From positions 1 to 13,713 of the forward strand of contig JAJRQX010000034.1 in NCBI GenBank assembly GCA_024280065.1: DNA of 13,713 nt. Direction: 5' to 3'. Position numbers and translations under genes: made by a program. The notes beneath the pieces were generated by a model. That model searched no databases, had not been told where the DNA came from, and saw only the letters and a list, made by a program, of their open reading frames with translations. Source of the stretch: Aquificota bacterium. GTDB lineage: Bacteria > Aquificota > Aquificia > Aquificales > Aquificaceae. Positions 1 to 12,986 of this stretch are shown here, piece after piece (the first letter of the stretch is position 1; the number at the start of each line of letters is the position of its first letter).

Positions 1-38
1 ACGAGCCACTCCATAAACGGTCTCGGTATTTCACCCAC
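1..38 (-). CDS. Start of an unidentified gene, cut by the window edge
   Basis: Reading the minus strand past the radical SAM gene, a GTG codon at 38-36 sits six bases after an AGGAGG ribosome site that lies inside the end of that gene. It opens a frame beginning MGEIPRPFMEWL, which continues out of the window. The GTG overlaps the end of the upstream gene, as do other genes in this region, so translational coupling is likely. Twelve codons are too few to assign a function. A second GTG at 34-32 in another frame is also possible but is less well spaced from the ribosome site. Confidence 0.4.
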   Translation of the reverse strand, partial: MGEIPRPFMEWL

Positions 39-1236
39 CTCTTTTCCTCCTGACCTTCTCAAGGAACTCAGGGGTGATCACATCTACCCCTTCCTCCGTA
101 GCCATCCTCTCTACTATTCTTATGACCACCCTTCTCAGGAAGAGCGGGACCCTCCTTATCCTCTCCCTGGCTTCCTCACTCCACGGGAGCGTGAAGCTGT
201 CGTCCCCGTGGTCGGTCACAGGTACAGGTTCTTCAGTCCCTTCAGGCTCATAGTCGCAGAGTGGGTCCTCGCCCATCAGGTCTCCCGTTTCCGTCAATGC
301 CCTCGCCCTGCAACCACCGCATATCAGCCTGAACCTGCAGAGACCGCACCTTCCGGAGTAATCCTCACCTCTTAAGGTCTTCAGTATCTCCGAACCCTCC
401 CAGACCTCCCTAAGTGTCTCCCTTGAGATGTCCCCCACCACCACGGGGAGGTAGGGACAGGGATAAACCCTCCCCCTCTCGTCCACCCTAAGGTAGAACC
501 TCCCTGCGGGACACCCCCTAGTTCCACCGGTTACCGGGAGATCAAACTCGGGAAAGAACCTGTATATGTGGGGGGCACACCTGGGTCTGACCATGACCCT
601 TCTCTCCCTAAGGGCCAGGTTCCCTATCCTCCTCAGGGCCTCTTCGTATCTCTCAGATGATATGAAGCTCCTGACCGCCCTTCCCGTGCAGACAACGAAG
701 AAGAAGTTGAGGATCTTAACGCCGAGGTCCACCGCCAGGTCTCTTATCTCCTCTATCTGGTCAAGGTTCTGATCCGTGACCGTGGTGTTTATCTGGGTTT
801 CCAATCCCAGATCCTTACAGATCTTTAACGTTTCAATCGCCCTTTTCCAGGAACCCTTAACTCCTCTGAAACTGTCGTGGAAGTGGGGGTCCACTGAGTC
901 TACGCTGACGCTGACACCTTTAAGACCCACTTCCACCAAACGCTTACCTCTTTCCTCTGAAAAACCTATACCTGTGGTGGCCAGAACCGTAACGAAACCG
1001 AGATCCGAAGAGAGCTTCACGATATCTTCAAGGTCCTTTCTCAGCATAGGCTCTCCGCCTGTGATTATAACCATGGTGAATGGGTTAAGATCCTTCAGGT
1101 CCCCGAGTACCTTGGCCACCATCTCCGGATGCATGTCGTGGCCCTGCCTCCTGGCGTCCATGAAGCAGTGCGGACAGTCCAGGGGGCATCTGGACGTCAC
1201 GCTGAGGGAGAGGAGATAGGGTTTCACAACTTCCAT
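31..1236 (-). CDS. Radical SAM/SPASM protein with C-terminal PCP-reductase-like domain
   Basis: A 401-residue radical SAM enzyme. The SAM cluster motif CxxxCxxC is C17, C21, C24, followed by the GGEP motif at 60-63. A SPASM-type cysteine set for extra Fe-S clusters follows: C242, C260, then C297, C300, C306, C309 and C327. The tail (about 351-397, starting PWSEEARERI and containing ITPEFLEKVRRK) looks like the small PCP-reductase domain named after light-independent protochlorophyllide reductase. Known radical SAM/SPASM proteins near heme d1 genes (NirJ, AhbC, AhbD) act on tetrapyrrole side chains. A tetrapyrrole substrate is therefore a reasonable inference here, but it is not shown; peptide modification is an alternative. 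The gene overlaps the end of the universal stress protein gene by 13 bases and is probably co-transcribed with it. It is distinct from the true nirJ at the other end of the window. Confidence 0.85.
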   Translation of the reverse strand: MEVVKPYLLSLSVTSRCPLDCPHCFMDARRQGHDMHPEMVAKVLGDLKDLNPFTMVIITGGEPMLRKDLEDIVKLSSDLGFVTVLATTGIGFSEERGKRLVEVGLKGVSVSVDSVDPHFHDSFRGVKGSWKRAIETLKICKDLGLETQINTTVTDQNLDQIEEIRDLAVDLGVKILNFFFVVCTGRAVRSFISSERYEEALRRIGNLALRERRVMVRPRCAPHIYRFFPEFDLPVTGGTRGCPAGRFYLRVDERGRVYPCPYLPVVVGDISRETLREVWEGSEILKTLRGEDYSGRCGLCRFRLICGGCRARALTETGDLMGEDPLCDYEPEGTEEPVPVTDHGDDSFTLPWSEEARERIRRVPLFLRRVVIRIVERMATEEGVDVITPEFLEKVRRKRGG

Positions 1237-2256: not shown

Positions 2257-2692
2257 GATGATTTATTCAGATACGGTCAGATACGCCCTCATGGCGCTCG
2301 CCTACCTCGCCTACAACAAGGGTCGCCTGGTCAAGGCGGATGAGATAGCCAAAGCTCAAGGGATACCGAAACCCTTCCTATCCAAGATCCTCCACGAGCT
2401 TGCCAAGAAGGACATCCTCTACTCGGTAAAGGGTCCCAAGGGCGGTTTCACCCTGAAGGTGGACCCCGCAAGCCTCTCCATGTGGGATGTGGTAGTCCTT
2501 ATGGGGGAGGAGGGCAAGTTTGACGCCTGCGTCCTCATGCCTAACAAGTGCGAGGTTTACGAGACGAACCCCTGCGTGATCCATAACAGATGGGAAAAGC
2601 TGAAGAAGAGGATCGTTGAGTTCCTAAAGGAGACCACCATAGCGGACCTGATAAGCGTTGAGGACAAGCACATCAAGACCTTAATACCCTGA
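2255..2692 (+). CDS. Rrf2-family transcriptional regulator (NsrR/IscR-like)
   Basis: A 145-residue winged-helix regulator of the Rrf2 family. The N-terminus (SDTVRYALMALAYLA) and the recognition region (about 27-68, IPKPFLSKILHELAK then GPKGGFTL) are typical. Three cysteines, C92, C99 and C107, lie in the loop where NsrR and IscR bind an Fe-S cluster; their spacing (6 and 7 intervening residues) is slightly wider than the usual 5 and 5. Family members sense NO, cluster status or redox, and the surrounding NO genes favour NO sensing, which is inference. The start is ATG at 2255 or the adjacent ATG at 2258. No ribosome site is visible and TATAAT lies 9-14 bases upstream, so the transcript is probably leaderless. 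The 3' end overlaps the convergent NnrS-like gene by 20 bases. Confidence 0.88.
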   Translation: MMIYSDTVRYALMALAYLAYNKGRLVKADEIAKAQGIPKPFLSKILHELAKKDILYSVKGPKGGFTLKVDPASLSMWDVVVLMGEEGKFDACVLMPNKCEVYETNPCVIHNRWEKLKKRIVEFLKETTIADLISVEDKHIKTLIP

Positions 2693-3878
2693 TGTAGATA
2701 AATATACCCCTGCTCACGTTGTAGGTGAGCAGGACGAAGGAGAGAAGGTAGAGGGGTAGGTGGGCGCTGTAGAGGGGTAGGTCTGTCTGGAGGGAGATAA
2801 GGATAACGCCCACCGAGACCATGTGCACACCGACGTGAAACCAGATCGATCTCTGACTTATGACCTCGTGCATGGTGGGGGCGTTCCTTATACCTTTAGT
2901 TGAGAGGTGTATCCAGACAAGGAACGGGATTATCCTATACATCATCGCCATTATCACAGTCTGGGCGAAGGTTCCGAAGAGGACCAGAAAGGTCAGGAAC
3001 AGGCTGTAGCTGATGTTCCTTAACGGGAAGATCAGGGAGGAGGCTACCAGGAACACCATGCTCAGATACCAGAGAGTAACTAACGGATCCCTCACCTTCC
3101 TCCTTCTGAGAAGCAGGTTTCTGACTGTGAGGAATGCGAAGGCGATGGTGAGCCCCGATATGAACAGGTCAGGGGCAACGCTACCTTGGAATACAAGCTT
3201 GGATAGTATTACCAAGGAAAGGGCTAAAGGCATCCTGTCCCTCACAACCTTCGGATAGGGAGGGGCTACGAAGAACATCTCCACCACCTGAAAAGCGACG
3301 GAGATAACGAGCATGGCGACCCACCCGTAGAGCATAACGGTTAGGTGGAGGTCCATCACGGTTCTCATGTTGAGGTCGATGTGTCCCTCCTGTACCAGAA
3401 CGAGCAAAAGTCCCAGAACCGCTCCCGCACCCAGCATGAAGACCGCGTGTTTCATACCCCTGGATGTAGGGACATAGCTCTCAAGCTTGAAGAGAGGCAA
3501 TCCTAAGAAAAGCAGGACCAGGAGTATACTGAGGAAGACCACAAGACCTCCGATCAGAGGTGATCCTCTCAGGAAACCCCCTACAAGAAGAATGACACCC
3601 GCCAGCAGGGTTATGTGGACCACCGTAGCTTTAAGGAGAGGCCTATTTACCACCGCTCCGGCTACGACCGGAACCATCTGGAAGAGGGCTCCTATCATCG
3701 TCATACCTGCAAAGCCGAGGGTGTAGATGTGGACGAGGGCGGGGAGGTTGAGGTATCCCTTAAAGGTCATATAAACACCTAGCAAGACACCGAAGATACC
3801 GAACAGGCAGGCGGTCAGAAAGAACCTGGCGACTATGCTGAAAGGGGGTAAGTATAGGAGGTTCAGGTTACCTGTCAT
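2673..3878 (-). CDS. NnrS-like polytopic membrane protein
   Basis: A 401-residue, very hydrophobic protein with about 12 predicted membrane helices, the length and helix number of the NnrS family. The early segment around H50 (ALVHIYTLGFAGMTMIGALF, then PVVAG) follows the NnrS pattern of a histidine helix followed by a GF...P..G motif. A second histidine region, DLHLTVMLYGWVAML (175-189, H178), and a late MMYRIIPFLVWIHLSTKG segment also resemble heme-binding helices of heme-copper-oxidase-like membrane proteins. NnrS proteins are heme-containing and protect cells during NO exposure, but their chemistry is unsettled. The start codon overlaps the hemerythrin stop as ATGA, so the two are translationally coupled. 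Family assignment is moderate, because similarity to divergent oxidase-subunit-I-like proteins is also possible. Confidence 0.65.
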   Translation of the reverse strand: MTGNLNLLYLPPFSIVARFFLTACLFGIFGVLLGVYMTFKGYLNLPALVHIYTLGFAGMTMIGALFQMVPVVAGAVVNRPLLKATVVHITLLAGVILLVGGFLRGSPLIGGLVVFLSILLVLLFLGLPLFKLESYVPTSRGMKHAVFMLGAGAVLGLLLVLVQEGHIDLNMRTVMDLHLTVMLYGWVAMLVISVAFQVVEMFFVAPPYPKVVRDRMPLALSLVILSKLVFQGSVAPDLFISGLTIAFAFLTVRNLLLRRRKVRDPLVTLWYLSMVFLVASSLIFPLRNISYSLFLTFLVLFGTFAQTVIMAMMYRIIPFLVWIHLSTKGIRNAPTMHEVISQRSIWFHVGVHMVSVGVILISLQTDLPLYSAHLPLYLLSFVLLTYNVSRGIFIYIRVLRS

Positions 3879-4309
3879 ACTTCTCCCAGGCTCGCCAGCC
3901 TCTCTACCACCTCCTCCCTGTTAAGGTGCTGGTCCGACATAGGGTACAGTATCTGCTCCTCCTTCATGTTGTGCTGTTGCAGGAGGACCATCAGTGAGTC
4001 CCCGACAGATAGGAACTCTTCCTTGTTTCTGGTCTTCAGAGCTTCCTCAAGCCTCTCAAGGAGCTCCCTCGCCTGCTGATGCTCAAACCTCATAACCTGG
4101 GTAGGACCCATCGTTATCCCGGTCCTCGCCTCAAACTCGGGAAACAGTATTTCCTCCTCCTTCCTGAAGTGCAGAAGGGTCTTCTCCTTGAATAGGTTGA
4201 ATGCCTCCTCCGCCTCCTTCCACCTATCCTCCGCAACAGCCTTCTCAGCGTCCGCATAGAACCTGTCACACTTTCTGTGCTCTTCTGCAAGATACTGGGT
4301 TATGAACAT
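3875..4309 (-). CDS. Hemerythrin-like (HHE) cation-binding protein
   Basis: A 144-residue all-helical hemerythrin-fold protein. Likely di-iron ligands are H11 (EEHRKCDRF), H47 and E51 (LLHFRKEEEILFPE), H77 (FEHQQAREL), and H113 with E117 (LQQHNMKEEQILYP). Such proteins bind O2 or NO, or handle iron; in denitrifiers they often accompany NO-response genes. I start it at ATG 4309 because a GGAGGT site lies six bases upstream; an in-frame GTG at 4333 would put that ribosome site inside the coding region. It is the middle gene of a minus-strand operon, 39 bases after the cytochrome b fusion and overlapping the NnrS-like gene by four bases. Cytoplasmic, with no signal peptide. Possible role: NO or O2 scavenging, or protection of Fe-S and di-iron sites (inference). 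Confidence 0.88.
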   Translation of the reverse strand: MFITQYLAEEHRKCDRFYADAEKAVAEDRWKEAEEAFNLFKEKTLLHFRKEEEILFPEFEARTGITMGPTQVMRFEHQQARELLERLEEALKTRNKEEFLSVGDSLMVLLQQHNMKEEQILYPMSDQHLNREEVVERLASLGEV

Positions 4310-4315
4310 ATCCCC

Positions 4316-4321
4316 ACCTCC
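4316..4321 (-). promoter_or_regulatory. Ribosome binding site that fixes the hemerythrin start
   Basis: On the minus strand GGAGGT lies six bases before ATG 4309. It supports this ATG over the in-frame GTG 24 bases further upstream. Confidence 0.8.
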
Positions 4322-4337
4322 ATAAGTAAACACTTAT
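4322..4337. promoter_or_regulatory. Inverted repeat upstream of hemerythrin
   Basis: ATAAGT-AAAC-ACTTAT is a dyad with six-base arms and a four-base spacer. It lies in the 39-base gap between the cytochrome b fusion gene and the hemerythrin gene. Next to it, 4342-4351 is the palindrome TAATATATTA, and ATAATAT (4341-4347) repeats one arm of the palindrome beside the Rrf2 gene. These may be an internal promoter and operator; AT-richness makes chance similarity possible. Confidence 0.35.
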
Positions 4338-4348
4338 TTAATAATATA

Positions 4349-6292
4349 TTACCTCCCTATTTCAAAGAAACCCGTTTCCTCAGCGTAGGTTATCGCAGTG
4401 CTCGTTGCGGGGTTCATCCTTTTCCTTAATGTGAACCTGATCACCTTCTCCGGATGAGCGGTCTCTTTCAGTGTTAGCTCCAAGGTGTGTGTTCCGGGGG
4501 ATACAAGAAACTCCTCGTAAACGTATACTGAAGCGTCTCTCCTCAGACCTCTCGGATTGTAAGTCTTCCTGAGGATCTCCCCCCCGTCCATCTTAAGGAT
4601 TACCTCTATGGGCGATCTCTCAAGGGCTATGTTCTGGACAGCCTGCATGTGTCTGAGCTTGCTGTAGACCTTCTCCACCCTCTTCACTGGAGAAGACCTG
4701 TACTTGAAGGTTAGGACGACAAGGGCCTTGTCCTCAGGGTAGAATCCCATCCTGTCAACGGTTAAGGGATAGAAGCTGAGGAAGGGAAGAAGTAACATAA
4801 CACCACTGAGGAGGTGGTTCACCTTCAGCTTTGAGAGTATCCTTACATCCTCGGGGAGCTTTCCACCTTCTATCTCTCTTAGGAAGGCGTCCAGCTCACC
4901 GCTTATATCCGCGGTTGTCGGAGCCTCCACTATCCTGACCTTTCCCCTCGGGAGTGTCTTCAAGAGTCTGGGTCTCCTCTTTCCTGTGAACCTCTCCTCC
5001 GTCCACAGGGTCCCTTCCCTGAAGTAGCAGTCTAAACCGTCGCAGGTGACTATCAGGACACCGCCTGTTAGCTTCAGTATCTCTCTCATCCAGACAGCGT
5101 TTACAGCTCCTGCACAGGGTAGTGTGTAGACCGTAACGCCCTGTCTCTCGGGAACTTCAGCAGAGAAGGAACATCTGAAGACGAGGAGTGTGGGCCTGTT
5201 CTCCCCAACCTGGTTCACGATCTCCGTAAAAGGAACCGTGGGTATCATGCTGGCGTTGTAGTTGCAGGAAGCTATGCATATACCACACCCTGCGCACTTG
5301 TTATCCAGCACAACCGCTTTCTTTTTGCCGTTTACCTGCTTCATGTATATGGCTTCGTAGGGGCAGTCTATGAAGCACTGCTCACAACCTTCGCACTTGT
5401 CCTCAACTACGTATGCGGGTGGGTTTCTCCTCCCCTTCACTATCCACGGGAAGACGATGAGGATACCAAAGAGACCCAAGAATATTATCCAGTTTACGGA
5501 CAGCGGGAAGACCTTGAAGAGGGGGTATCCCGTGAGGTAGAACCAGTCCATACTCATGCCGAAGGGGACCTTACCGAGGTCCGCGGGGGGGTCGCTCTTC
5601 GCCGGAAAGACAATTGAGACCCCTACAACGTATAGGGTGAGGAGTATCATGAGATACTTGGGTGGGAATATCCTCGGTCTTGAGATCCTCATAACGTGTA
5701 CCCAAAGGGTAAATACGAGGAGTATTGTGACAGCTATATGTCCGAAGAGGAGTATCCTGAAGAGACCTCCCAAGTTCTTTACGTCCGTCCCCAGGAAGGC
5801 ACTCATGAGGGTATGTCCGAATATGGGTATAACGCTGAAGAACTTGGCTGTGAGTAGGCCTATTAGCTGAGCCCTCTCGTCCCAAGCGAGGAGGTAGCCG
5901 GAAACTCCTATCGCCCAGAATATTATCAGCGTGGACACACCCGAAACCCAGGCCACCCACCTGAAGAGCCTGAACCTGTCCGTCAGGATCATGTGAACCA
6001 TGTGAAGGACCGCAAAGAGTATGAGACCGTCGGAGGAGTACCTGTGGACGCTCCTCATGAGGCTTCCCAGGAAGGAGGATGAGATGGCTTCCACTGACTG
6101 ATAGGCCTCCTCGGGGTCAACCTCGTAGAAGAAGAACAGGTATATACCAGAAATAATGTCGATTATAAGCAGAAAGACGGTTATGGCTCCTAAGTAGTAC
6201 ATGGGGTTCAGTTTTGAGGAGTAAACACCGCTGAGGGTGTATGAGATCCTCTGGATAAACCTGTAGGTGGAACTCGGAGAGACCAGCTCCAT
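4349..6292 (-). CDS. Cytochrome b / ferredoxin / MvhD-like fusion with periplasmic tail
   Basis: A 647-residue multidomain protein. Residues 1-285 are a cytochrome b of the bc1/b6 type with about six membrane helices. The bis-heme ligands are H83/H97 and H185/H199, each pair 14 apart as in mitochondrial cytochrome b. The position of the quinol-site PEWY motif reads MDWF (248-251). Residues 296-350 carry two [4Fe-4S] sites (C300, C303, C306, C310; C333, C336, C339, C343). Residues 368-458 resemble the MvhD/hydrogenase delta Fe-S domain, with C374, C393, C417 and C422. A last helix (about 494-511) precedes a beta-rich tail of about 135 residues that should lie in the periplasm if the earlier topology is right. 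This suggests quinone-linked electron transfer with cytoplasmic Fe-S carriers. No Rieske or cytochrome c1 gene is nearby. It is first in the operon with hemerythrin and the NnrS-like gene; its exact function is unknown. Confidence 0.85.
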   Translation of the reverse strand: MELVSPSSTYRFIQRISYTLSGVYSSKLNPMYYLGAITVFLLIIDIISGIYLFFFYEVDPEEAYQSVEAISSSFLGSLMRSVHRYSSDGLILFAVLHMVHMILTDRFRLFRWVAWVSGVSTLIIFWAIGVSGYLLAWDERAQLIGLLTAKFFSVIPIFGHTLMSAFLGTDVKNLGGLFRILLFGHIAVTILLVFTLWVHVMRISRPRIFPPKYLMILLTLYVVGVSIVFPAKSDPPADLGKVPFGMSMDWFYLTGYPLFKVFPLSVNWIIFLGLFGILIVFPWIVKGRRNPPAYVVEDKCEGCEQCFIDCPYEAIYMKQVNGKKKAVVLDNKCAGCGICIASCNYNASMIPTVPFTEIVNQVGENRPTLLVFRCSFSAEVPERQGVTVYTLPCAGAVNAVWMREILKLTGGVLIVTCDGLDCYFREGTLWTEERFTGKRRPRLLKTLPRGKVRIVEAPTTADISGELDAFLREIEGGKLPEDVRILSKLKVNHLLSGVMLLLPFLSFYPLTVDRMGFYPEDKALVVLTFKYRSSPVKRVEKVYSKLRHMQAVQNIALERSPIEVILKMDGGEILRKTYNPRGLRRDASVYVYEEFLVSPGTHTLELTLKETAHPEKVIRFTLRKRMNPATSTAITYAEETGFFEIGR

Positions 6293-6354
6293 GTCCCGCC
6301 TCCGAGGAGAGTAATTACATACTTACCTTCCTCTACCTAATTAAATTAAGAATA

Positions 6355-6373
6355 ATTGATAGGTAAATCATAA
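6355..6373 (-). promoter_or_regulatory. Shared 19-bp motif, copy 1 (divergent cytochrome b / NO reductase promoter region)
   Basis: On the minus strand this reads TTATGATTTACCTATCAAT. All 15 defined positions of TTATGATTT-N4-ATCAAT are identical to the copy before nirS. The core is a dyad, TGAT-N6-ATCA. It contains a TATGAT that could be the -10 of the minus-strand operon, about 75 bases before its start codon. It could also act on the plus-strand operon, whose start lies 105 bases away. The bound factor is unknown; the half-site resembles FNR-family half-sites, but the spacing is two bases longer. Confidence 0.55.
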
Positions 6374-6415
6374 ATAATTCTTATGGCTTTCATCACAATC
6401 TCTTATAGAAAATTG

Positions 6416-6437
6416 AGTAAGAGGTCATAAACTTACT
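6416..6437. promoter_or_regulatory. Inverted repeat in the leader of the heme-copper operon
   Basis: AGTAAG (6416-6421) and CTTACT (6432-6437) are perfect inverted arms separated by ten bases. The site lies 41-62 bases before the first start codon of the operon. It could be an operator or a weak RNA hairpin; no direct evidence decides. Confidence 0.3.
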
Positions 6438-6477
6438 TATAGAGGTGAGTGAATAAGCATTTACGGAGGTAGGGAAG

Positions 6478-6651
6478 ATGAGCGAGGAGAAGAAAGCCCC
6501 TTTCCTTCAGCTGGTGTTTGATGACTTTATACTCTTACTTTTCCTTGGAGTAGCTATCTACGCTGTTTCCTATCTTATCTGGGGTCTCATAGAGATAGCG
6601 TGGACCCCGCCCATACCTGATGAGATCAAGGAGGCCCTCTTAGGGAGGTGA
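6478..6651 (+). CDS. Small single-helix subunit of the heme-copper complex
   Basis: A 57-residue protein with one membrane helix (about 18-40, within FILLLFLGVAIYAVSYLIWG), preceded by a charged N-terminus (MSEEKKAP) and followed by a short polar tail. Single-helix subunits of this kind accompany ba3-type oxidases (subunit IIa of the Thermus enzyme is one). I infer that it is a structural subunit packing against subunit I. A GGAGGT site precedes the ATG. The stop lies five bases before the subunit II start, so the two are coupled. It is the first gene of the operon. Confidence 0.7.
   Translation: MSEEKKAPFLQLVFDDFILLLFLGVAIYAVSYLIWGLIEIAWTPPIPDEIKEALLGR
6643..6650 (+). promoter_or_regulatory. 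Ribosome binding site deciding the subunit II start
   Basis: GGGAGGTG, overlapping the stop of the small subunit gene, has its GGAGGT core seven bases before ATG 6657. The alternative in-frame GTG at 6648 lies inside this site, so ATG 6657 is the better start. Confidence 0.75.
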
Positions 6652-6656
6652 GAGCC

Positions 6657-7187
6657 ATGGCACTTCTTCCGCCGAGGGAAGGGTGGTTTCATCAGAAGGT
6701 AGCTAAGGATGAGAAGATCTGGATGGGGCTTGCCTTCGTGGTGTCCCTGTTCCTCTTCTTCTGGATGATCATATGGCACGTTTACGCCAAACAGAACCCC
6801 TCCTTCGTAACCTACAAGACAACGCCCGAAGAGTTCTACGAGCTTACCCAGGCCTTCATAGAGAAGTACAAGGTAGGAGAGGAGAACGGGATACCTGTGG
6901 TCAAGCCCCCTCCGGGGAGCGACGTGTTTCTCCTCGCCCGCCAGTTCAGGTGGGAGCCCGTCCTGATACTAAAGAAGGGTGAGGAGTACAGGTTCCACAT
7001 ATCCTCTTTAGACGTCCTTCATGGTTTTTCCCTCCAGCCCGTAAACATGAACTTTATGGTCTACCCCAAATACGATTACGTCCTGACCTTCAGACCAACG
7101 TCCGCGGGTGAATACTACATAGTCTGCAACGAGTTCTGCGGTATAGGGCATCACATGATGATAGGCAAGATCGTCGTTGAGGAGTAG
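6657..7187 (+). CDS. CuA subunit II of a ba3-like heme-copper reductase (probable NO reductase)
   Basis: A 176-residue protein with one N-terminal helix (about 21-42) anchoring a periplasmic cupredoxin domain. All copper ligands of a binuclear CuA centre are present: H122 in DVLHGF, then C157, C161, H165 and M168 in VCNEFCGIGHHMM. It should take electrons from a periplasmic cytochrome c or other carrier and pass them to subunit I. The short N-terminus without a second helix and the overall length match B-family (ba3) subunit II. E19, in DEKIW, lines up with the Thermus ba3 glutamate at the K-channel entrance (YEKGW), from memory of that sequence. Neighbours: small subunit upstream, subunit I 13 bases downstream. 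In the norSY-senC loci of ammonia oxidisers a similar pair is proposed to be the sNOR. Confidence 0.88.
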   Translation: MALLPPREGWFHQKVAKDEKIWMGLAFVVSLFLFFWMIIWHVYAKQNPSFVTYKTTPEEFYELTQAFIEKYKVGEENGIPVVKPPPGSDVFLLARQFRWEPVLILKKGEEYRFHISSLDVLHGFSLQPVNMNFMVYPKYDYVLTFRPTSAGEYYIVCNEFCGIGHHMMIGKIVVEE

Positions 7188-7200
7188 GGAGGTGTGAGTC

Positions 7201-8895
7201 ATGGCTGTTGCAACCCACGGTGGTGAGCAGTGGTTCAGGACATGCGATGTGACGGGTTTTAAGGTGGATGTAAGGGCGGAGAGGATAGCCAAGGTAAACG
7301 CGGTTATGGCTGTGGTCTCCTTCCTGATAGCGGTTATAGCCGCACTCCTCCTCGTCCTCACCAGGTGGCAGATAATACACCTGCTCCCCGTTGACTGGTA
7401 TTACAGAGTCCTGACACTTCACGGACTTGACGCCTTAGTCTTCTGGATAATCTTCTTTGAGCTCGCCGCTCTCGTCTTCGGATCAACGGCCTTCCTGAAC
7501 ACCCGCATGTCTTCACCCTTCGTGGGCTGGACTGGAACTGCTCTGGCCATCTTGGGCTTCCTCATGGTGAACTATATGATCCTGACTGGGAACGCGGACG
7601 TCCTTATGACCTCCTACGCACCCCTGAAGGCCCACCCCCTCTTTTACCTCGGTATGATACTCTTCGCGGTGGGAGCCCTGCTCATAGTCTCAACCTTCTT
7701 CGCGAACCTGATGATCTGGAGAAGGGAGAATCCGGGTCAGTCTCTGCCTCTATTCGTTTACGGTCTTATGGCCGCAGCGATAATAGCGGTGATAACCATA
7801 GTCTCGGGAGCGATCATCTACATACCCACATTCCTCTGGTCCCTCGGGATCATAAAGGACATAGACCCTGCGGTTTACAAGCTCGTGTGGTGGGGGCTCG
7901 GACACCCATCTCAGCAGATAAATGTCTCAGCCCACGTAGCTGTGTGGTACCTTCTCGCCTTCCTGACCGTGGGAGGGCAGTCCATAAACGAGAAGATAAG
8001 CAGGTTTGCCTTTATCCTGTACATAGTAGCCATAAACGTGGCCTCAGCCCACCATCTGCTCGTTGACCCTGCGGTAAGCCCTGTCTGGAAGGTCTGGAAC
8101 ACAAGCTACGTTATGTACTTAGCGGTCTTTGCTTCCATGATCCATGCATTCGCGGTTCCCTCGGCTATAGAGGTAGCCCAGAGGAAGAGGGGCTACACGA
8201 AGGGCCTCTTTGAGTGGCTCAAGAGAGCTCCCTGGGGCAACCCTGCCTTCTCGGGTCTCATGCTCTCCATGATAATCTTCGGGTTCATAGGTGGTATAAC
8301 GGGTGTGGTGAACGGTATGGAACAGACCAACATAATAGCCCACAACACCCTCTCCGTTCCCGGACACTTCAAGGGAGCGGTTGTCGGCGGAACAGCATTG
8401 GCCTTCATGAGCGTTACATACTACCTCATACCCCTCCTCTTCAGGAAGAAGATAGCCTTCTACGGTGTTGCCAAGTACGTTCCCTGGATATTCGGCATAG
8501 GTGTGGCGATACTCGCTGTATCGATGTATATACTCGGAGCGTTCGGCATACCGAGGAGGCACTGGGACATCACCTTCTCCGGTGGGCCATTCACCTTCAC
8601 CTACAACCCCGTTACTGATTTCTTCTGGGCCCTCTTCGGCATAGGAGGTCTCCTTGCGGTTGTGGGTGCCCTCATCTGGATAGTCCAGGTCGTGGTATCT
8701 GTCTTCTTCGGACAGCCCTTCAGGGGACCCCAGGACCTCCAGATACCGATAGCTGAACCCGTCCAGATGGACGAAGAGCACAAAGGTTTCGCAGCACCTG
8801 GGACATTTGTCCTCGTTCTCCTTTTCATAGTCGCCTTCATCATATTCGTAGCTCTGAACTACGGCTGGCTCTCAGCCATGTGGGAGGTGAGATAG
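7201..8895 (+). CDS. Heme-copper reductase subunit I, ba3-like, probable NO reductase (sNOR type)
   Basis: A 564-residue integral membrane protein with about 12-13 helices, aligning along its length with B-family (ba3) subunit I. H74 (LTLHG) is a low-spin heme ligand. H235 (GLGHP) and H284/H285 (SAHHLLVDP) are the copper or iron B-site ligands. H389 (VPGHF) is the high-spin heme ligand. Two key residues differ from oxygen reductases. The cross-linked tyrosine four residues after the first B-site histidine is Q239; the same position is a glutamate in cNOR. The second low-spin heme histidine, two residues after H389, is K391. With SenC downstream and nirS nearby, this favours the sNOR group (norSY-senC type), reducing NO to N2O. 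A divergent O2 reductase remains possible. The K-channel threonines of ba3 appear to be His and Ala here (tentative alignment). Confidence 0.85.
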   Translation: MAVATHGGEQWFRTCDVTGFKVDVRAERIAKVNAVMAVVSFLIAVIAALLLVLTRWQIIHLLPVDWYYRVLTLHGLDALVFWIIFFELAALVFGSTAFLNTRMSSPFVGWTGTALAILGFLMVNYMILTGNADVLMTSYAPLKAHPLFYLGMILFAVGALLIVSTFFANLMIWRRENPGQSLPLFVYGLMAAAIIAVITIVSGAIIYIPTFLWSLGIIKDIDPAVYKLVWWGLGHPSQQINVSAHVAVWYLLAFLTVGGQSINEKISRFAFILYIVAINVASAHHLLVDPAVSPVWKVWNTSYVMYLAVFASMIHAFAVPSAIEVAQRKRGYTKGLFEWLKRAPWGNPAFSGLMLSMIIFGFIGGITGVVNGMEQTNIIAHNTLSVPGHFKGAVVGGTALAFMSVTYYLIPLLFRKKIAFYGVAKYVPWIFGIGVAILAVSMYILGAFGIPRRHWDITFSGGPFTFTYNPVTDFFWALFGIGGLLAVVGALIWIVQVVVSVFFGQPFRGPQDLQIPIAEPVQMDEEHKGFAAPGTFVLVLLFIVAFIIFVALNYGWLSAMWEVR

Positions 8896-8898
8896 CCC

Positions 8899-9648
8899 AT
8901 GGCTCCCCTCCTTGTCCCCCTCCTTCTTTCTCTCCTTTTTTACTCCTTCTCAGTGGAGATGGTCCCGGAGGCTCAAAGGGTGATAGGGAGGAGCGTCCCG
9001 AACGTGGAGCTTATCCTTGAGGACGGGAGCGTGAGGACGCTGAAGGAGATCTCGGAAGGGAAGGTAACCTTACTCTCCTTTGTCTACACTGGGTGCACCT
9101 CCGCCTGTCCGATGATAGTGAGGGGTATAAAGGAAGCTGTTGCTGGTTTGAATGAGCGCAAATTTAGGGTCCTCCTCGTGGACTTTGACCTGAGGGACAC
9201 ACCTAAGGACCTGAGGGATTTCAGGCTGAGAAGGTCCATACCCGATGACTGGGTGCTGGCCAAGGCTGAAAGTGAAAACTTGGAGAGGCTCACCAGGGCG
9301 GTTGACTTTAAGTTCTTCTACGATGAGAGGACAGATATGTTCGCCCACCCAAACGTCCTTATAGTCCTCACACAGGATCTTAAGGTCTCAGCTTACTTCC
9401 TTGGCGTCTCTTACAGCAGAGACAAGCTGGCCAAGGCGGTAGATAAGGCTTCCGCAGGTGATCTTAGCCTGAACCCAATAAAGAGCTTGCTTCTAAAGTG
9501 CTTCAGATACGACCCTATTACGGGAGCCTACACCGTTGACTGGTCCTTCGTTGCTATGGTCTTTGGGGGTCTTATCCCCATACTCGGTATGGCCTACTAC
9601 CTGTTTCTCAGGGACGCCATTGCAAACCTAAGGAGGGCATTGCTGTGA
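8899..9648 (+). CDS. Sco1/SenC copper chaperone with C-terminal membrane anchor
   Basis: A 249-residue thioredoxin-fold protein with the Sco copper site: C66 and C70 in YTGCTSACP, and H150 in MFAHPNV. Sco proteins deliver copper to CuA, which fits the CuA subunit encoded two genes upstream. An N-terminal hydrophobic stretch (1-17) is a signal peptide or signal anchor. Unusually for classical Sco, a second helix (about 215-236) lies near the C-terminus, after a CFRYDPITGAYTVDW segment. The domain should lie on the periplasmic side. It starts three bases after the subunit I stop, with GGAGGTGA lying before the stop, and it is the last gene of the operon. The same gene order, with SenC after two heme-copper subunits, is known from norSY-senC loci. 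Confidence 0.9.
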   Translation: MAPLLVPLLLSLLFYSFSVEMVPEAQRVIGRSVPNVELILEDGSVRTLKEISEGKVTLLSFVYTGCTSACPMIVRGIKEAVAGLNERKFRVLLVDFDLRDTPKDLRDFRLRRSIPDDWVLAKAESENLERLTRAVDFKFFYDERTDMFAHPNVLIVLTQDLKVSAYFLGVSYSRDKLAKAVDKASAGDLSLNPIKSLLLKCFRYDPITGAYTVDWSFVAMVFGGLIPILGMAYYLFLRDAIANLRRALL

Positions 9649-11381: not shown

Positions 11382-12986
11382 ATGGCCTCTCTCATCTCAC
11401 TGCGCTCCCTCGCCCCCTCCCTTTCTCTCTTTTTCCTTTTTTCCTTTGCAGGAGAGGGCCTCTATATGAAGCTCTGTGCCAGCTGCCACGGAGAAGACAG
11501 GCTCGGCAGAACAGCACCCCCCCTGATACCTGACCTCATGAGGTTCAAAACCGAGGAGGATCTGAGGAAGGTCATAAGGGAAGGTATACCCGCTTCAAAC
11601 ATGCCCGGCTTTGACCTGAGCCGGAAGGACCTTGAGTCTCTGATCAGGTTCATAAGGTCTCCCATCCCTGAGGTCAGGTGGGACCTTGATGATAGTGTGA
11701 GGACCTCAAGGACCCTGGTGGAAAGGGAAAAACCGAACTACGGAGAGGTCAGCCTTAAGGACCTCGTGGTCTTCGTAGACAAAGGAAAGGGAAGGGTGGT
11801 TCTGCTTAGGGGCTCCGAGGTTATAGACTCCTTCCCCTTCAGGAACGTTCACGGAGGTGTGAAGTTCACTGAGGAGGGTTTCTATATACCATCAAGGGAC
11901 GGCTGGGTCATTTACTACAGCCTCAGGGATAGGAGGCCTGAGGTAAAGTTAAGGGCCTGCGTCTACCTTAGGAACGTGGCTGTAAACGGAAACCTGGTTG
12001 CGGTCGCCTGCACCCTCCCCCGTTCCCTCCTCATTGCTGACAGGCTCCTGAGACCTGAGAGGTTGATCCCTCTGGAGGGGAGGCCCTCCGCGGTATACCC
12101 GTACCGGGATGGTTTCGTGGTCGGTTTCAGGGACAGACCCTTAGTCGCTCTCGTGGGCAAGGACGGAAGTATACGCTACGTGAAGGTGGACACCCCTCTG
12201 GAGGATTTCTTCATAGACCCCTTCAGCAGGTATCTGGTAGGAAGTTCAAGGGAGGTTGAAGGGATAGTAGTTTACGAACTACCAGATTTCAAAAAGGTCA
12301 CATCCGTAGAAACAGGCTCCCTTCCCCACCTCTTCGCCACCGCATTCTGGTACTGGAATGGAACCTTCTTCTTCGGAGCGCGCCACATAAACGACACAAA
12401 GGTGACCCTCTGGGATATGACCTCCTTTAAAAAGGTGGCGGAGGTGGACACGGGAAGTAACGGCTTCTTCGTCAGGACCCACCCTTCCACCCCGTATCTG
12501 TGGTTGGACGGGGGAGACGGTGAGCTGGTCCTTGTAGACAAGAGGAGCTTTGAGGTGAGGAGGGTAGAGCTTCCCAGAGGAGGCAAGGTGACCCACGTTG
12601 AGTTCTCGGGAGACGGCGAGCTTGCCTACGTAAGTGTGAAAGGTCAGGGACTCCTGATCCTTGATGCCCGCATCTTTAAAGAGGTGGCTTTCCTCAAAAC
12701 TCCCCTTCCTTCGGGCAAGTACAACCCCCTGATGAAAACGGGGAAGGGTCTTAAGGCGCTTCTGGGATTTGAGGTCTTCATGAGGAAGTGCTGGGGGTGT
12801 CACCACCCCACCAGGCAGGCCTTCGGTCCCTCCTTCAGGTGGATAGCGGAAAGCAGGAGCAGGGATCTGATAGTCGCCCGCATGATAAACCCCGTAAGAC
12901 CCATGCCCAAGATAGACCTGTCCCCGGAGGAGGTGGAGGCCCTCATTAGCTTCATGGAGGTCTTGAGAGATGGGTGGTTTGATTGA
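11382..12986 (+). CDS. NirN/NirF-like d1-type protein fused to a second cytochrome c (c-d1-c)
   Basis: A 534-residue exported protein (hydrophobic N-terminus, about 1-22). An N-terminal cytochrome c domain has CASCH (C32, C35, H36) with M74 as probable axial ligand. A heme-d1-type propeller follows (about 120-445), with candidate ligands H157 (NVHGGV) and H316 (SLPHLF). A second cytochrome c domain at the C-terminus has CWGCH (C470, C473, H474) with M508 in RPMPKIDLS. The first two parts match NirN, which completes heme d1 by dehydrogenating a propionate of dihydro-heme d1; the propeller also resembles NirF. The third resembles NirC, the small cytochrome c that partners with these proteins, so this looks like a NirN-NirC (or NirF-NirC) fusion. 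The gene starts ten bases after nirS with a strong GAGGAGGG site overlapping the nirS stop. Confidence 0.85.
   Translation: MASLISLRSLAPSLSLFFLFSFAGEGLYMKLCASCHGEDRLGRTAPPLIPDLMRFKTEEDLRKVIREGIPASNMPGFDLSRKDLESLIRFIRSPIPEVRWDLDDSVRTSRTLVEREKPNYGEVSLKDLVVFVDKGKGRVVLLRGSEVIDSFPFRNVHGGVKFTEEGFYIPSRDGWVIYYSLRDRRPEVKLRACVYLRNVAVNGNLVAVACTLPRSLLIADRLLRPERLIPLEGRPSAVYPYRDGFVVGFRDRPLVALVGKDGSIRYVKVDTPLEDFFIDPFSRYLVGSSREVEGIVVYELPDFKKVTSVETGSLPHLFATAFWYWNGTFFFGARHINDTKVTLWDMTSFKKVAEVDTGSNGFFVRTHPSTPYLWLDGGDGELVLVDKRSFEVRRVELPRGGKVTHVEFSGDGELAYVSVKGQGLLILDARIFKEVAFLKTPLPSGKYNPLMKTGKGLKALLGFEVFMRKCWGCHHPTRQAFGPSFRWIAESRSRDLIVARMINPVRPMPKIDLSPEEVEALISFMEVLRDGWFD

What the first reader, a model, noticed from the sequence alone, without database searches (positions are those of the whole stretch)
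4349..6292. Cytochrome b fused to ferredoxin and MvhD-like domains
One polypeptide joins a bc1-type bis-heme b domain, two [4Fe-4S] sites and an MvhD-like [2Fe-2S] domain, then crosses the membrane again. Predicted topology puts the Fe-S part in the cytoplasm and the tail in the periplasm. MvhD-type domains normally link hydrogenase or heterodisulfide reductase modules, so a direct fusion to a quinone-type b domain suggests an undescribed route between the quinone pool and a cytoplasmic redox partner, possibly with bifurcation. Its divergent pairing with the NO reductase candidate hints at a role in NO metabolism.
Basis: partly seen in the sequence, partly recalled or inferred. Interest (0 to 1): 0.8.

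Follow-up and report, generated by a model that had tools for sequence, protein, structure and literature searches.

The report
Cytochrome b partner of NO reductase
A membrane heme protein with a cytoplasmic iron-sulfur module built into it is found, in the bacterial groups sampled, almost only in genomes that carry one little-studied type of nitric oxide reductase, usually close beside it, which suggests an undescribed way of feeding electrons to (or assembling) an enzyme that makes the greenhouse gas nitrous oxide.

Summary
ORF 4349-6292 (minus, 647 aa) carries four heme-b histidines, eight ferredoxin cysteines and four MvhD cysteines, essentially invariant. Correction: structure superposition places the Fe-S/MvhD module in the cytoplasmic loop between helices F and G of a seven-helix bc1-type cytochrome b; a periplasmic beta-sandwich tail follows. 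No Rieske motif was found in 80 loci; the genome has a separate bc1. The divergent neighbour is an eNOR-type NO reductase (Gln for the active-site Tyr, 64 of 64 aligned copies). Of 777 genomes in three sampled groups, 90 have both, 1 eNOR only, 5 this cytochrome only, 681 neither. In three of the 90 (and as a second copy in a fourth) the Fe-S/MvhD module is swapped for a [2Fe-2S]-FAD-NAD(P)H reductase; in 9 of 80 loci a NuoF-like gene sits beside it. Best reading: a dedicated transmembrane electron-transfer partner of eNOR, taking electrons from a cytoplasmic donor, NAD(P)H in some lineages. A CcoG-like assembly role and quinol bifurcation remain open; nothing is proven biochemically. No description was found in the open library, but the main eNOR paper was not held. 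New variant of a known kind; interest about 0.74.

The parts
4349..6292 (-). Cytochrome b with inserted 2[4Fe-4S] + MvhD module and periplasmic tail (647 aa), called b-FeS here
5435..6205 (-). Cytochrome b part, residues 30-286 (helices A-F; heme ligands H83, H97, H185, H199; PEWY-like D249-W250)
4820..5434 (-). Cytoplasmic F-G loop insertion, residues 287-491: two [4Fe-4S] sites (C300-C310, C333-C343) and MvhD-type domain (C374, C393, C417, C422)
4352..4744 (-). Periplasmic beta-sandwich tail, residues 517-647; a separate gene in some proteobacterial relatives
6293..6477 (.). Divergent intergenic region; imperfect inverted repeat 6347-6360 / 6370-6383
6478..6651 (+). 57-aa protein with one likely membrane span (by inspection), homologue upstream of eNOR subunit II in 62 of 63 loci, window included
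6648..7187 (+). eNOR subunit II, CuA cupredoxin
7201..8895 (+). eNOR subunit I (H235..Q239 in place of His..Tyr; CuB His pair H284-H285)
8899..9648 (+). SCO1/SenC-like copper protein
3875..4333 (-). Hemerythrin-like (HHE) protein just downstream of b-FeS (15-bp gap); membership in the system not shown
2673..3878 (-). 401-aa hydrophobic protein, no Pfam match above cut-off, overlaps the end of the HHE gene; membership not shown

Best explanation
The protein is the dedicated transmembrane electron-transfer partner of the eNOR-type NO reductase encoded beside it. It is a bc1-type bis-heme cytochrome b whose F-G loop on the cytoplasmic side holds two [4Fe-4S] clusters and an MvhD-type [2Fe-2S] domain, without a Rieske gene of its own. 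Shown by sequence and model: cofactor ligands, topology, co-inheritance with eNOR, and the existence of relatives in eNOR clusters in which the cytoplasmic module is an NAD(P)H-type flavin reductase instead. Inferred: (1) the cytoplasmic module takes electrons from a soluble donor: NAD(P)H directly in the reductase-fused variant, NADH through a NuoF-like flavoprotein where that gene is adjacent, an unknown donor in Aquificota; (2) electrons pass to heme bH and bL and can exchange with quinone at a PEWY-like site on the periplasmic face; (3) they reach the CuA centre of eNOR directly or through quinol and cytochrome c, with the periplasmic tail perhaps helping to dock; (4) NO is reduced to N2O.
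For: Co-occurrence: window's phylum (Aquificota by the names of its nearest relatives) 21 of 136 genomes with b-FeS and the same 21 with eNOR-I; class of G136: the same 6 of 345; order of G150: 63 both, 1 eNOR only, 5 b-FeS only, 227 neither; Fisher p about 1e-110 over 777, genomes not independent. eNOR-I or CuA subunit on the same contig in 65 of 80 loci, eNOR-I within three genes in 59. Protein distances correlate, r = 0.947 over 59 loci, permuted maximum 0.28. Ligands almost invariant. Module swap: in G591, G741 and G745, and as a second copy in G548, the cytochrome b near a Gln-type eNOR carries Fer2 + FAD_binding_6 + NAD_binding_1 instead of Fer4 + FlpD, and keeps the D-W motif; all 120 listed relatives of this variant have the same five Pfam domains. 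NuoF-like gene one gene away in 9 of 80 loci. Separate Rieske, cytochrome b and c-type cytochrome together in the own genome. cd1-type genes beside the window eNOR.
Against: No electron transfer, heme or cluster has been measured, and no model coordinates were available for heme-to-cluster distances. No NuoF-like gene lies beside b-FeS in the window or in the fetched Aquificota and Bacteroidota loci; the own genome's only NuoF found has a NuoE-like gene upstream, as in complex I. The own bc1 could itself feed CuA through cytochrome c, so a second donor is not strictly needed. Co-occurrence alone fits an assembly factor equally well. Whether the reductase-fused variant always goes with eNOR was not tested. 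Moving electrons outward would dissipate membrane potential. Six genomes in the order of G150 have only one of the two genes.
Confidence: 0.65

Rival explanations
1. It is an assembly reductase for eNOR, working like CcoG for cbb3 oxidase: electrons from the cytoplasm or quinol keep copper (or the CuA cysteines / SCO) reduced during metal insertion, and the periplasmic tail contacts SCO and subunit II.
For: The layout (TM core, two [4Fe-4S], last TM, periplasmic beta domain) resembles CcoG, which has two tetranuclear clusters, an Ig-like C-terminal domain, cupric reductase activity and a gene next to the cbb3 genes (PMC7558416, passages). A homologue of the window SCO occurs in 61 of 80 loci, directly before b-FeS in most Bacteroidota loci. 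An NAD(P)H reductase domain would suit this role too.
Confidence: 0.18
2. Quinol bifurcation without Rieske: quinol oxidised at the periplasmic site sends one electron to eNOR CuA and the other through bL, bH and the Fe-S/MvhD chain to a cytoplasmic low-potential acceptor (NAD+ or ferredoxin), so NO reduction would drive reverse electron transport.
For: PEWY-like D-W motif almost invariant; Fe-S path on the cytoplasmic side; NAD-linked partners or domains in some lineages; an analogous scheme (quinol to NAD(P)+ plus nitrite) has been proposed for anammox Rieske/cytochrome b complexes with an NAD(P) oxidoreductase (PMC12954380, sections 3 and 13).
Against: Without a Rieske domain no known gate forces one-electron splitting; solved relatives of the reductase domain in the variant are mostly enzymes that oxidise NAD(P)H (named; direction recalled); no acceptor is identified in Aquificota.
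Confidence: 0.11
3. It is an ordinary Rieske/cytochrome b (bc-type) subunit that happens to lie near eNOR.
For: Clear homology of the membrane part to bc1 cytochrome b.
Against: No Rieske motif in 80 loci (the single motif hit is an SCO domain); the own genome's bc1 has its own cytochrome b on another contig; near-obligate co-occurrence with eNOR.
Confidence: 0.04

Closest known systems
Cytochrome b of bc1 complexes
   Different: About 200 residues with three Fe-S sites inserted between helices F and G; periplasmic tail after G; no Rieske motif nearby
MvhD/FlpD, electron-transfer subunit of methanogen hydrogenase-Hdr complexes
   Same: Domain homology and the four cysteines
   Different: Built into a membrane cytochrome b; no hydrogenase or Hdr partner seen (not searched for)
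Cytochrome b fused to Fer2-FAD-NAD(P)H reductase (e.g. P0248, P0280; no published description looked up)
   Same: Same type of cytochrome b core with D-W motif, found near eNOR in G591, G741, G745, G548
   Different: Cytoplasmic module is a plant-type [2Fe-2S] ferredoxin plus flavin reductase after helix F instead of Fer4 + MvhD
Anammox Rieske/cytochrome b complexes with NAD(P) oxidoreductase (PMC12954380)
   Same: Cytochrome b linked to a cytoplasmic flavin/Fe-S module and to nitrogen-oxide chemistry on the other side
   Different: They have Rieske, subunit IV and multiheme cytochromes; here one chain without a Rieske gene, tied to eNOR
CcoG/FixG cupric reductase of cbb3 oxidase assembly
   Same: TM part, two [4Fe-4S], last TM, periplasmic beta domain, gene next to a heme-copper enzyme
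   Different: Membrane core is a bis-heme cytochrome b; MvhD domain added; no sequence link of the tail detected
norSY-senC (sNOR) cluster of Nitrosomonas
   Same: CuA subunit, heme-copper subunit I and SenC/SCO together
   Different: Window enzyme has the eNOR Gln signature; no b-FeS gene is mentioned in the passages seen

Membership tests
eNOR (neighbouring enzyme) | Gln in place of the active-site Tyr of subunit I (PMC8756737) | tested here: met
   H235..Q239, 64 of 64 aligned copies, window included
eNOR (neighbouring enzyme) | Two-subunit enzyme with cupredoxin (CuA) subunit II | tested here: met
   Subunit II 6648-7187 directly upstream, CuA motif
eNOR (neighbouring enzyme) | Proton channel | not tested
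   Channel residues not examined
eNOR (neighbouring enzyme) | NO reductase activity | not testable with these tools
   needs biochemistry
Rieske/cytochrome b (bc-type) complex | Bis-heme cytochrome b with four histidines | tested here: met
Rieske/cytochrome b (bc-type) complex | PEWY-type motif at the quinol site | tested here: inconclusive
   Aligned as M-D-W-F-Y; D249 77/78, W250 78/78; Pro and Glu not kept in the window
Rieske/cytochrome b (bc-type) complex | Rieske protein encoded with it | tested here: not met
   0 of 80 loci by motif, ORFs of 70 aa or more; one hit was an SCO domain
Rieske/cytochrome b (bc-type) complex | Cytochrome c1/f encoded with it | tested here: inconclusive
   No profile search; another CxxCH protein within three genes in 10 of 80 loci, of differing families
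MvhD/FlpD domain family | FlpD profile match and four cysteines | tested here: met
   27 of 27 isolated regions match PF02662; cysteines align with 5odc_D
MvhD/FlpD domain family | Association with hydrogenase or Hdr | tested here: inconclusive
   Only FlpD protein in the own genome is this one; hydrogenase and Hdr genes not searched for; genome 79% complete
CcoG/FixG | FixG-type C-terminal domain | tested here: inconclusive
   No Pfam hit; all-beta model with generic matches only
CcoG/FixG | Cupric reductase activity | not testable with these tools
   needs biochemistry
Anammox-type NAD(P)-linked cytochrome b complex | NAD(P) oxidoreductase encoded with it | tested here: not met
   Not beside the window gene; NuoF-like in 9 of 80 loci, NAD(P)H reductase domain fused in four proteobacterial genomes

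The most novel reading that the evidence does not exclude
A Rieske-free, NO-driven electron bifurcator: quinol oxidised at the periplasmic face of this cytochrome b is split between the CuA site of eNOR and, through hemes bL/bH and the Fe-S/MvhD loop, a cytoplasmic NAD+ or ferredoxin acceptor, so that NO reduction powers reverse electron transport in autotrophs.
Probability: 0.11. Interest if true: 0.93.

Novelty: new variant of a known kind. Interest (0 to 1): 0.74.

Why it matters
How eNOR-type NO reductases, which make N2O and are predicted to have a proton channel, receive electrons or are assembled is open as far as I could read. A near-obligate partner that joins a quinone-type cytochrome b to an exchangeable cytoplasmic module (Fe-S/MvhD in most, an NAD(P)H reductase in some) makes the question directly testable, offers a marker that separates eNOR clusters from look-alike cytochrome oxidases, and points to a cytochrome b working without a Rieske protein of its own.

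Tried and rejected

Each sampled group was centred on a genome chosen because it carries the cluster (G000, G136, G150). Of 21 locus genomes searched for eNOR-I, two had no match (G139, G147) and one only the 29% paralogue (G141); L016 was not held. Five b-FeS-only genomes (G660, G672, G684, G758, G776) and one eNOR-only genome (G597, a fragment) were not followed up; some b-FeS matches in that group are fragments (G684 and G694 most of all). Three of the 63 'both' genomes there (G591, G741, G745) have only the reductase-fused variant. Dropped before the tally: L001 and L002; own-genome loci fetched later (L082-L085) were not in it. In L063 and L065 eNOR-I is cut by the contig end and was counted as absent; L079's b-FeS was not caught by the clustering. 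SCO counts differ by method: 62 by cluster and length (includes cut eNOR-I pieces), 61 by BLAST, which I use. Thresholds: E<=1e-30 for b-FeS, E<=1e-60 for eNOR-I, so distant eNORs (haloarchaea, Rhodothermus) were not tested for the partner. Whether it is in print: paper searches listed no description that I recognised; the likely main eNOR paper (10.1073/pnas.2316422121, identifier and content recalled) is not held.

Full report
What is there. The ORF at 4349-6292 on the minus strand encodes 647 aa. Pfam finds a cytochrome b N-terminal domain (24-203) and a 2[4Fe-4S] ferredoxin (293-347); the MvhD-type (FlpD) match is just under cut-off for the whole protein and above it for the isolated region, and 27 of 27 isolated regions scanned match FlpD. 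A profile of that region matches solved MvhD chains, with the four cysteines on MvhD cysteines. In 78 copies the four heme histidines, eight ferredoxin cysteines, W250 and three MvhD cysteines are 78/78, D249 and the fourth MvhD cysteine 77/78.

Architecture. The AF2 model is confident (pLDDT 88.7, pTM 0.85). Foldseek and VIA-align match it to cytochrome b of bc1 complexes. In many rows the match runs from model residue about 14 to 519 on chain residues about 24 to 344, so the last membrane helix superposes on helix G (helix limits recalled). The Fe-S/MvhD module is thus an insertion in the cytoplasmic F-G loop of a seven-helix cytochrome b. A profile comparison with the genome's own bc1 cytochrome b (probability 97.4%) aligns its PEWY motif with M-D-W-F-Y. 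The tail after helix G is all-beta (pLDDT 91.3), has no Pfam match and only generic structural matches. It is a separate gene in L076, L077 and L081, and in many genomes of the order of G150 it matches as a separate stretch beside the main one. Loop charges fit cytochrome b topology.

Neighbours in the window. Divergently, from 6478: a 57-aa protein, a CuA subunit II, a heme-copper subunit I and an SCO protein, then cd1-type genes and a radical SAM gene. Subunit I carries Gln at the position of the catalytic Tyr (H235..Q239) in 64 of 64 aligned copies, with the CuB pair H284-H285. The literature gives Gln as the eNOR signature (PMC8756737, passages) and lists eNOR among biochemically characterised NORs (PMC11388526, passages). 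The small protein has a tblastn homologue upstream of subunit II in 62 of 63 loci, window included; in L043 only 61 bases were at hand.

Neighbours elsewhere. In 80 loci (79 fetched plus the window) eNOR-I or CuA is on the contig in 65, eNOR-I within three genes of b-FeS in 59; a window-SCO homologue in 61; a CtaB-like gene (named from its sequence, no family search run) in 13; a NuoF-like gene in 9, each time one gene away (family confirmed on one member), in seven of them with two b-FeS copies. No Rieske gene was found by motif. Another CxxCH protein lies within three genes in 10. In most Bacteroidota loci the order is CuA/cytochrome c subunit, subunit I, SCO, b-FeS on one strand.

Co-occurrence. 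Window's phylum: 21 of 136 genomes have b-FeS, the same 21 have eNOR-I. Class of G136 (a Chitinophagaceae MAG): the same 6 of 345. Order of G150 (a gammaproteobacterial MAG): eNOR-I in 64 of 296, b-FeS in 68 of 296, 63 shared. Together 90 both, 1 eNOR only, 5 b-FeS only, 681 neither; Fisher p about 1e-110, to be read loosely because related genomes are not independent and each group was centred on a carrier. Of 21 further genomes behind fetched loci, 18 have a clear eNOR-I. Pairwise distances of the two proteins correlate (r = 0.947, 59 loci, permuted maximum 0.28), to which shared species history contributes.

Module swap. Some matches in the order of G150 cover only the cytochrome b part inside longer frames. 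Reading four of them showed cytochrome b followed by a plant-type [2Fe-2S] domain, FAD_binding_6 and NAD_binding_1 in G741 and G548, G591 (within a longer frame) and G745. In G591, G741 and G745 this is the only cytochrome b of the kind that matched; G548 has it beside an MvhD-type copy and a separate tail gene. All four lie near a Gln-type eNOR-I and keep the D-W motif. The 120 best relatives of the G741 protein all carry the same five Pfam domains; the closest solved relatives of the reductase part include benzoate dioxygenase reductase and NqrF. So the cytoplasmic module of eNOR-linked cytochrome b is exchangeable, and in one version it is an NAD(P)H-type reductase. This is the best clue to the job of the MvhD version in the window.

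Own genome. G000 (79% complete) has three PF00115 matches: an oxidase-like subunit I on C179 (type not determined), the eNOR, and a paralogue below cut-off. The window protein is its only FlpD match. A Rieske, a second cytochrome b and a c-type cytochrome lie together on another contig. Its single NuoF match has a NuoE-like gene upstream.

Interpretation. The strongest inference is that b-FeS serves eNOR. Electron supply is preferred to assembly because the cofactor chain runs from a cytoplasmic docking module to a periplasmic quinone-type site and because NAD(P)H-linked partners or domains appear in several lineages. The CcoG parallel (PMC7558416, passages) keeps assembly alive. Quinol bifurcation to NAD+ has a published analogue in anammox Rieske/cytochrome b complexes (PMC12954380, outline and sections 3 and 13), but here there is no Rieske gene and, in the window, no NAD-linked gene beside it.

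Literature. Other passages seen: sNOR clusters in Nitrosomonas (PMC6967387, PMC5118430), eNOR in Zetaproteobacteria and Gallionellaceae (PMC8114936, PMC10734462). None of the passages seen mentions this partner. The probable main eNOR paper was not held, so novelty is provisional.

Noticed in passing
window 6478-6651 (+): 57-aa hydrophobic protein directly upstream of eNOR subunit II; homologue at this place in 62 of 63 loci, window included; below the length cut-offs used for ORF listing.
   Followed up: partly
L093, L094, L095 (G591, G745, G741) and L096:1822-4290 (G548): Cytochrome b fused to Fer2 + FAD + NAD(P)H-reductase domains near eNOR; the same five Pfam domains in all 120 listed relatives.
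   Followed up: partly
L084 (own genome C156:523-1815, minus): 431-aa relative of heme-copper subunit I without the CuB His-His pair, beside a CtaB-like gene; related genes in 55 of 136 genomes of the phylum, some right next to eNOR-I in genera g3 and g6, and fused to SCO in L019.
   Followed up: partly
L057, L060, L061, L063, L065, L067, L068, L071, L072: NuoF-like gene adjacent to b-FeS; seven of these nine have two b-FeS copies.
   Followed up: partly
L018 and most other Bacteroidota loci: CuA subunit II carries an added CxxCH heme c motif.
   Followed up: no
window 11382-12986 (+): cd1-type protein with the cytochrome c domain matched in two stretches and two CxxCH motifs ((locus W)).
   Followed up: no
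window 31-1236 (-): NirJ2/AhbD-like radical SAM protein with a C-terminal PCP_red domain.
   Followed up: no
window 2673-3878 (-): 401-aa hydrophobic protein without a Pfam match above cut-off; same family in 9 other loci; overlaps the hemerythrin-like gene by 4 bp.
   Followed up: partly
window 6347-6383: Imperfect inverted repeat (14-nt arms, 9-nt spacer) in the divergent region, only partly kept in the closest relatives.
   Followed up: partly
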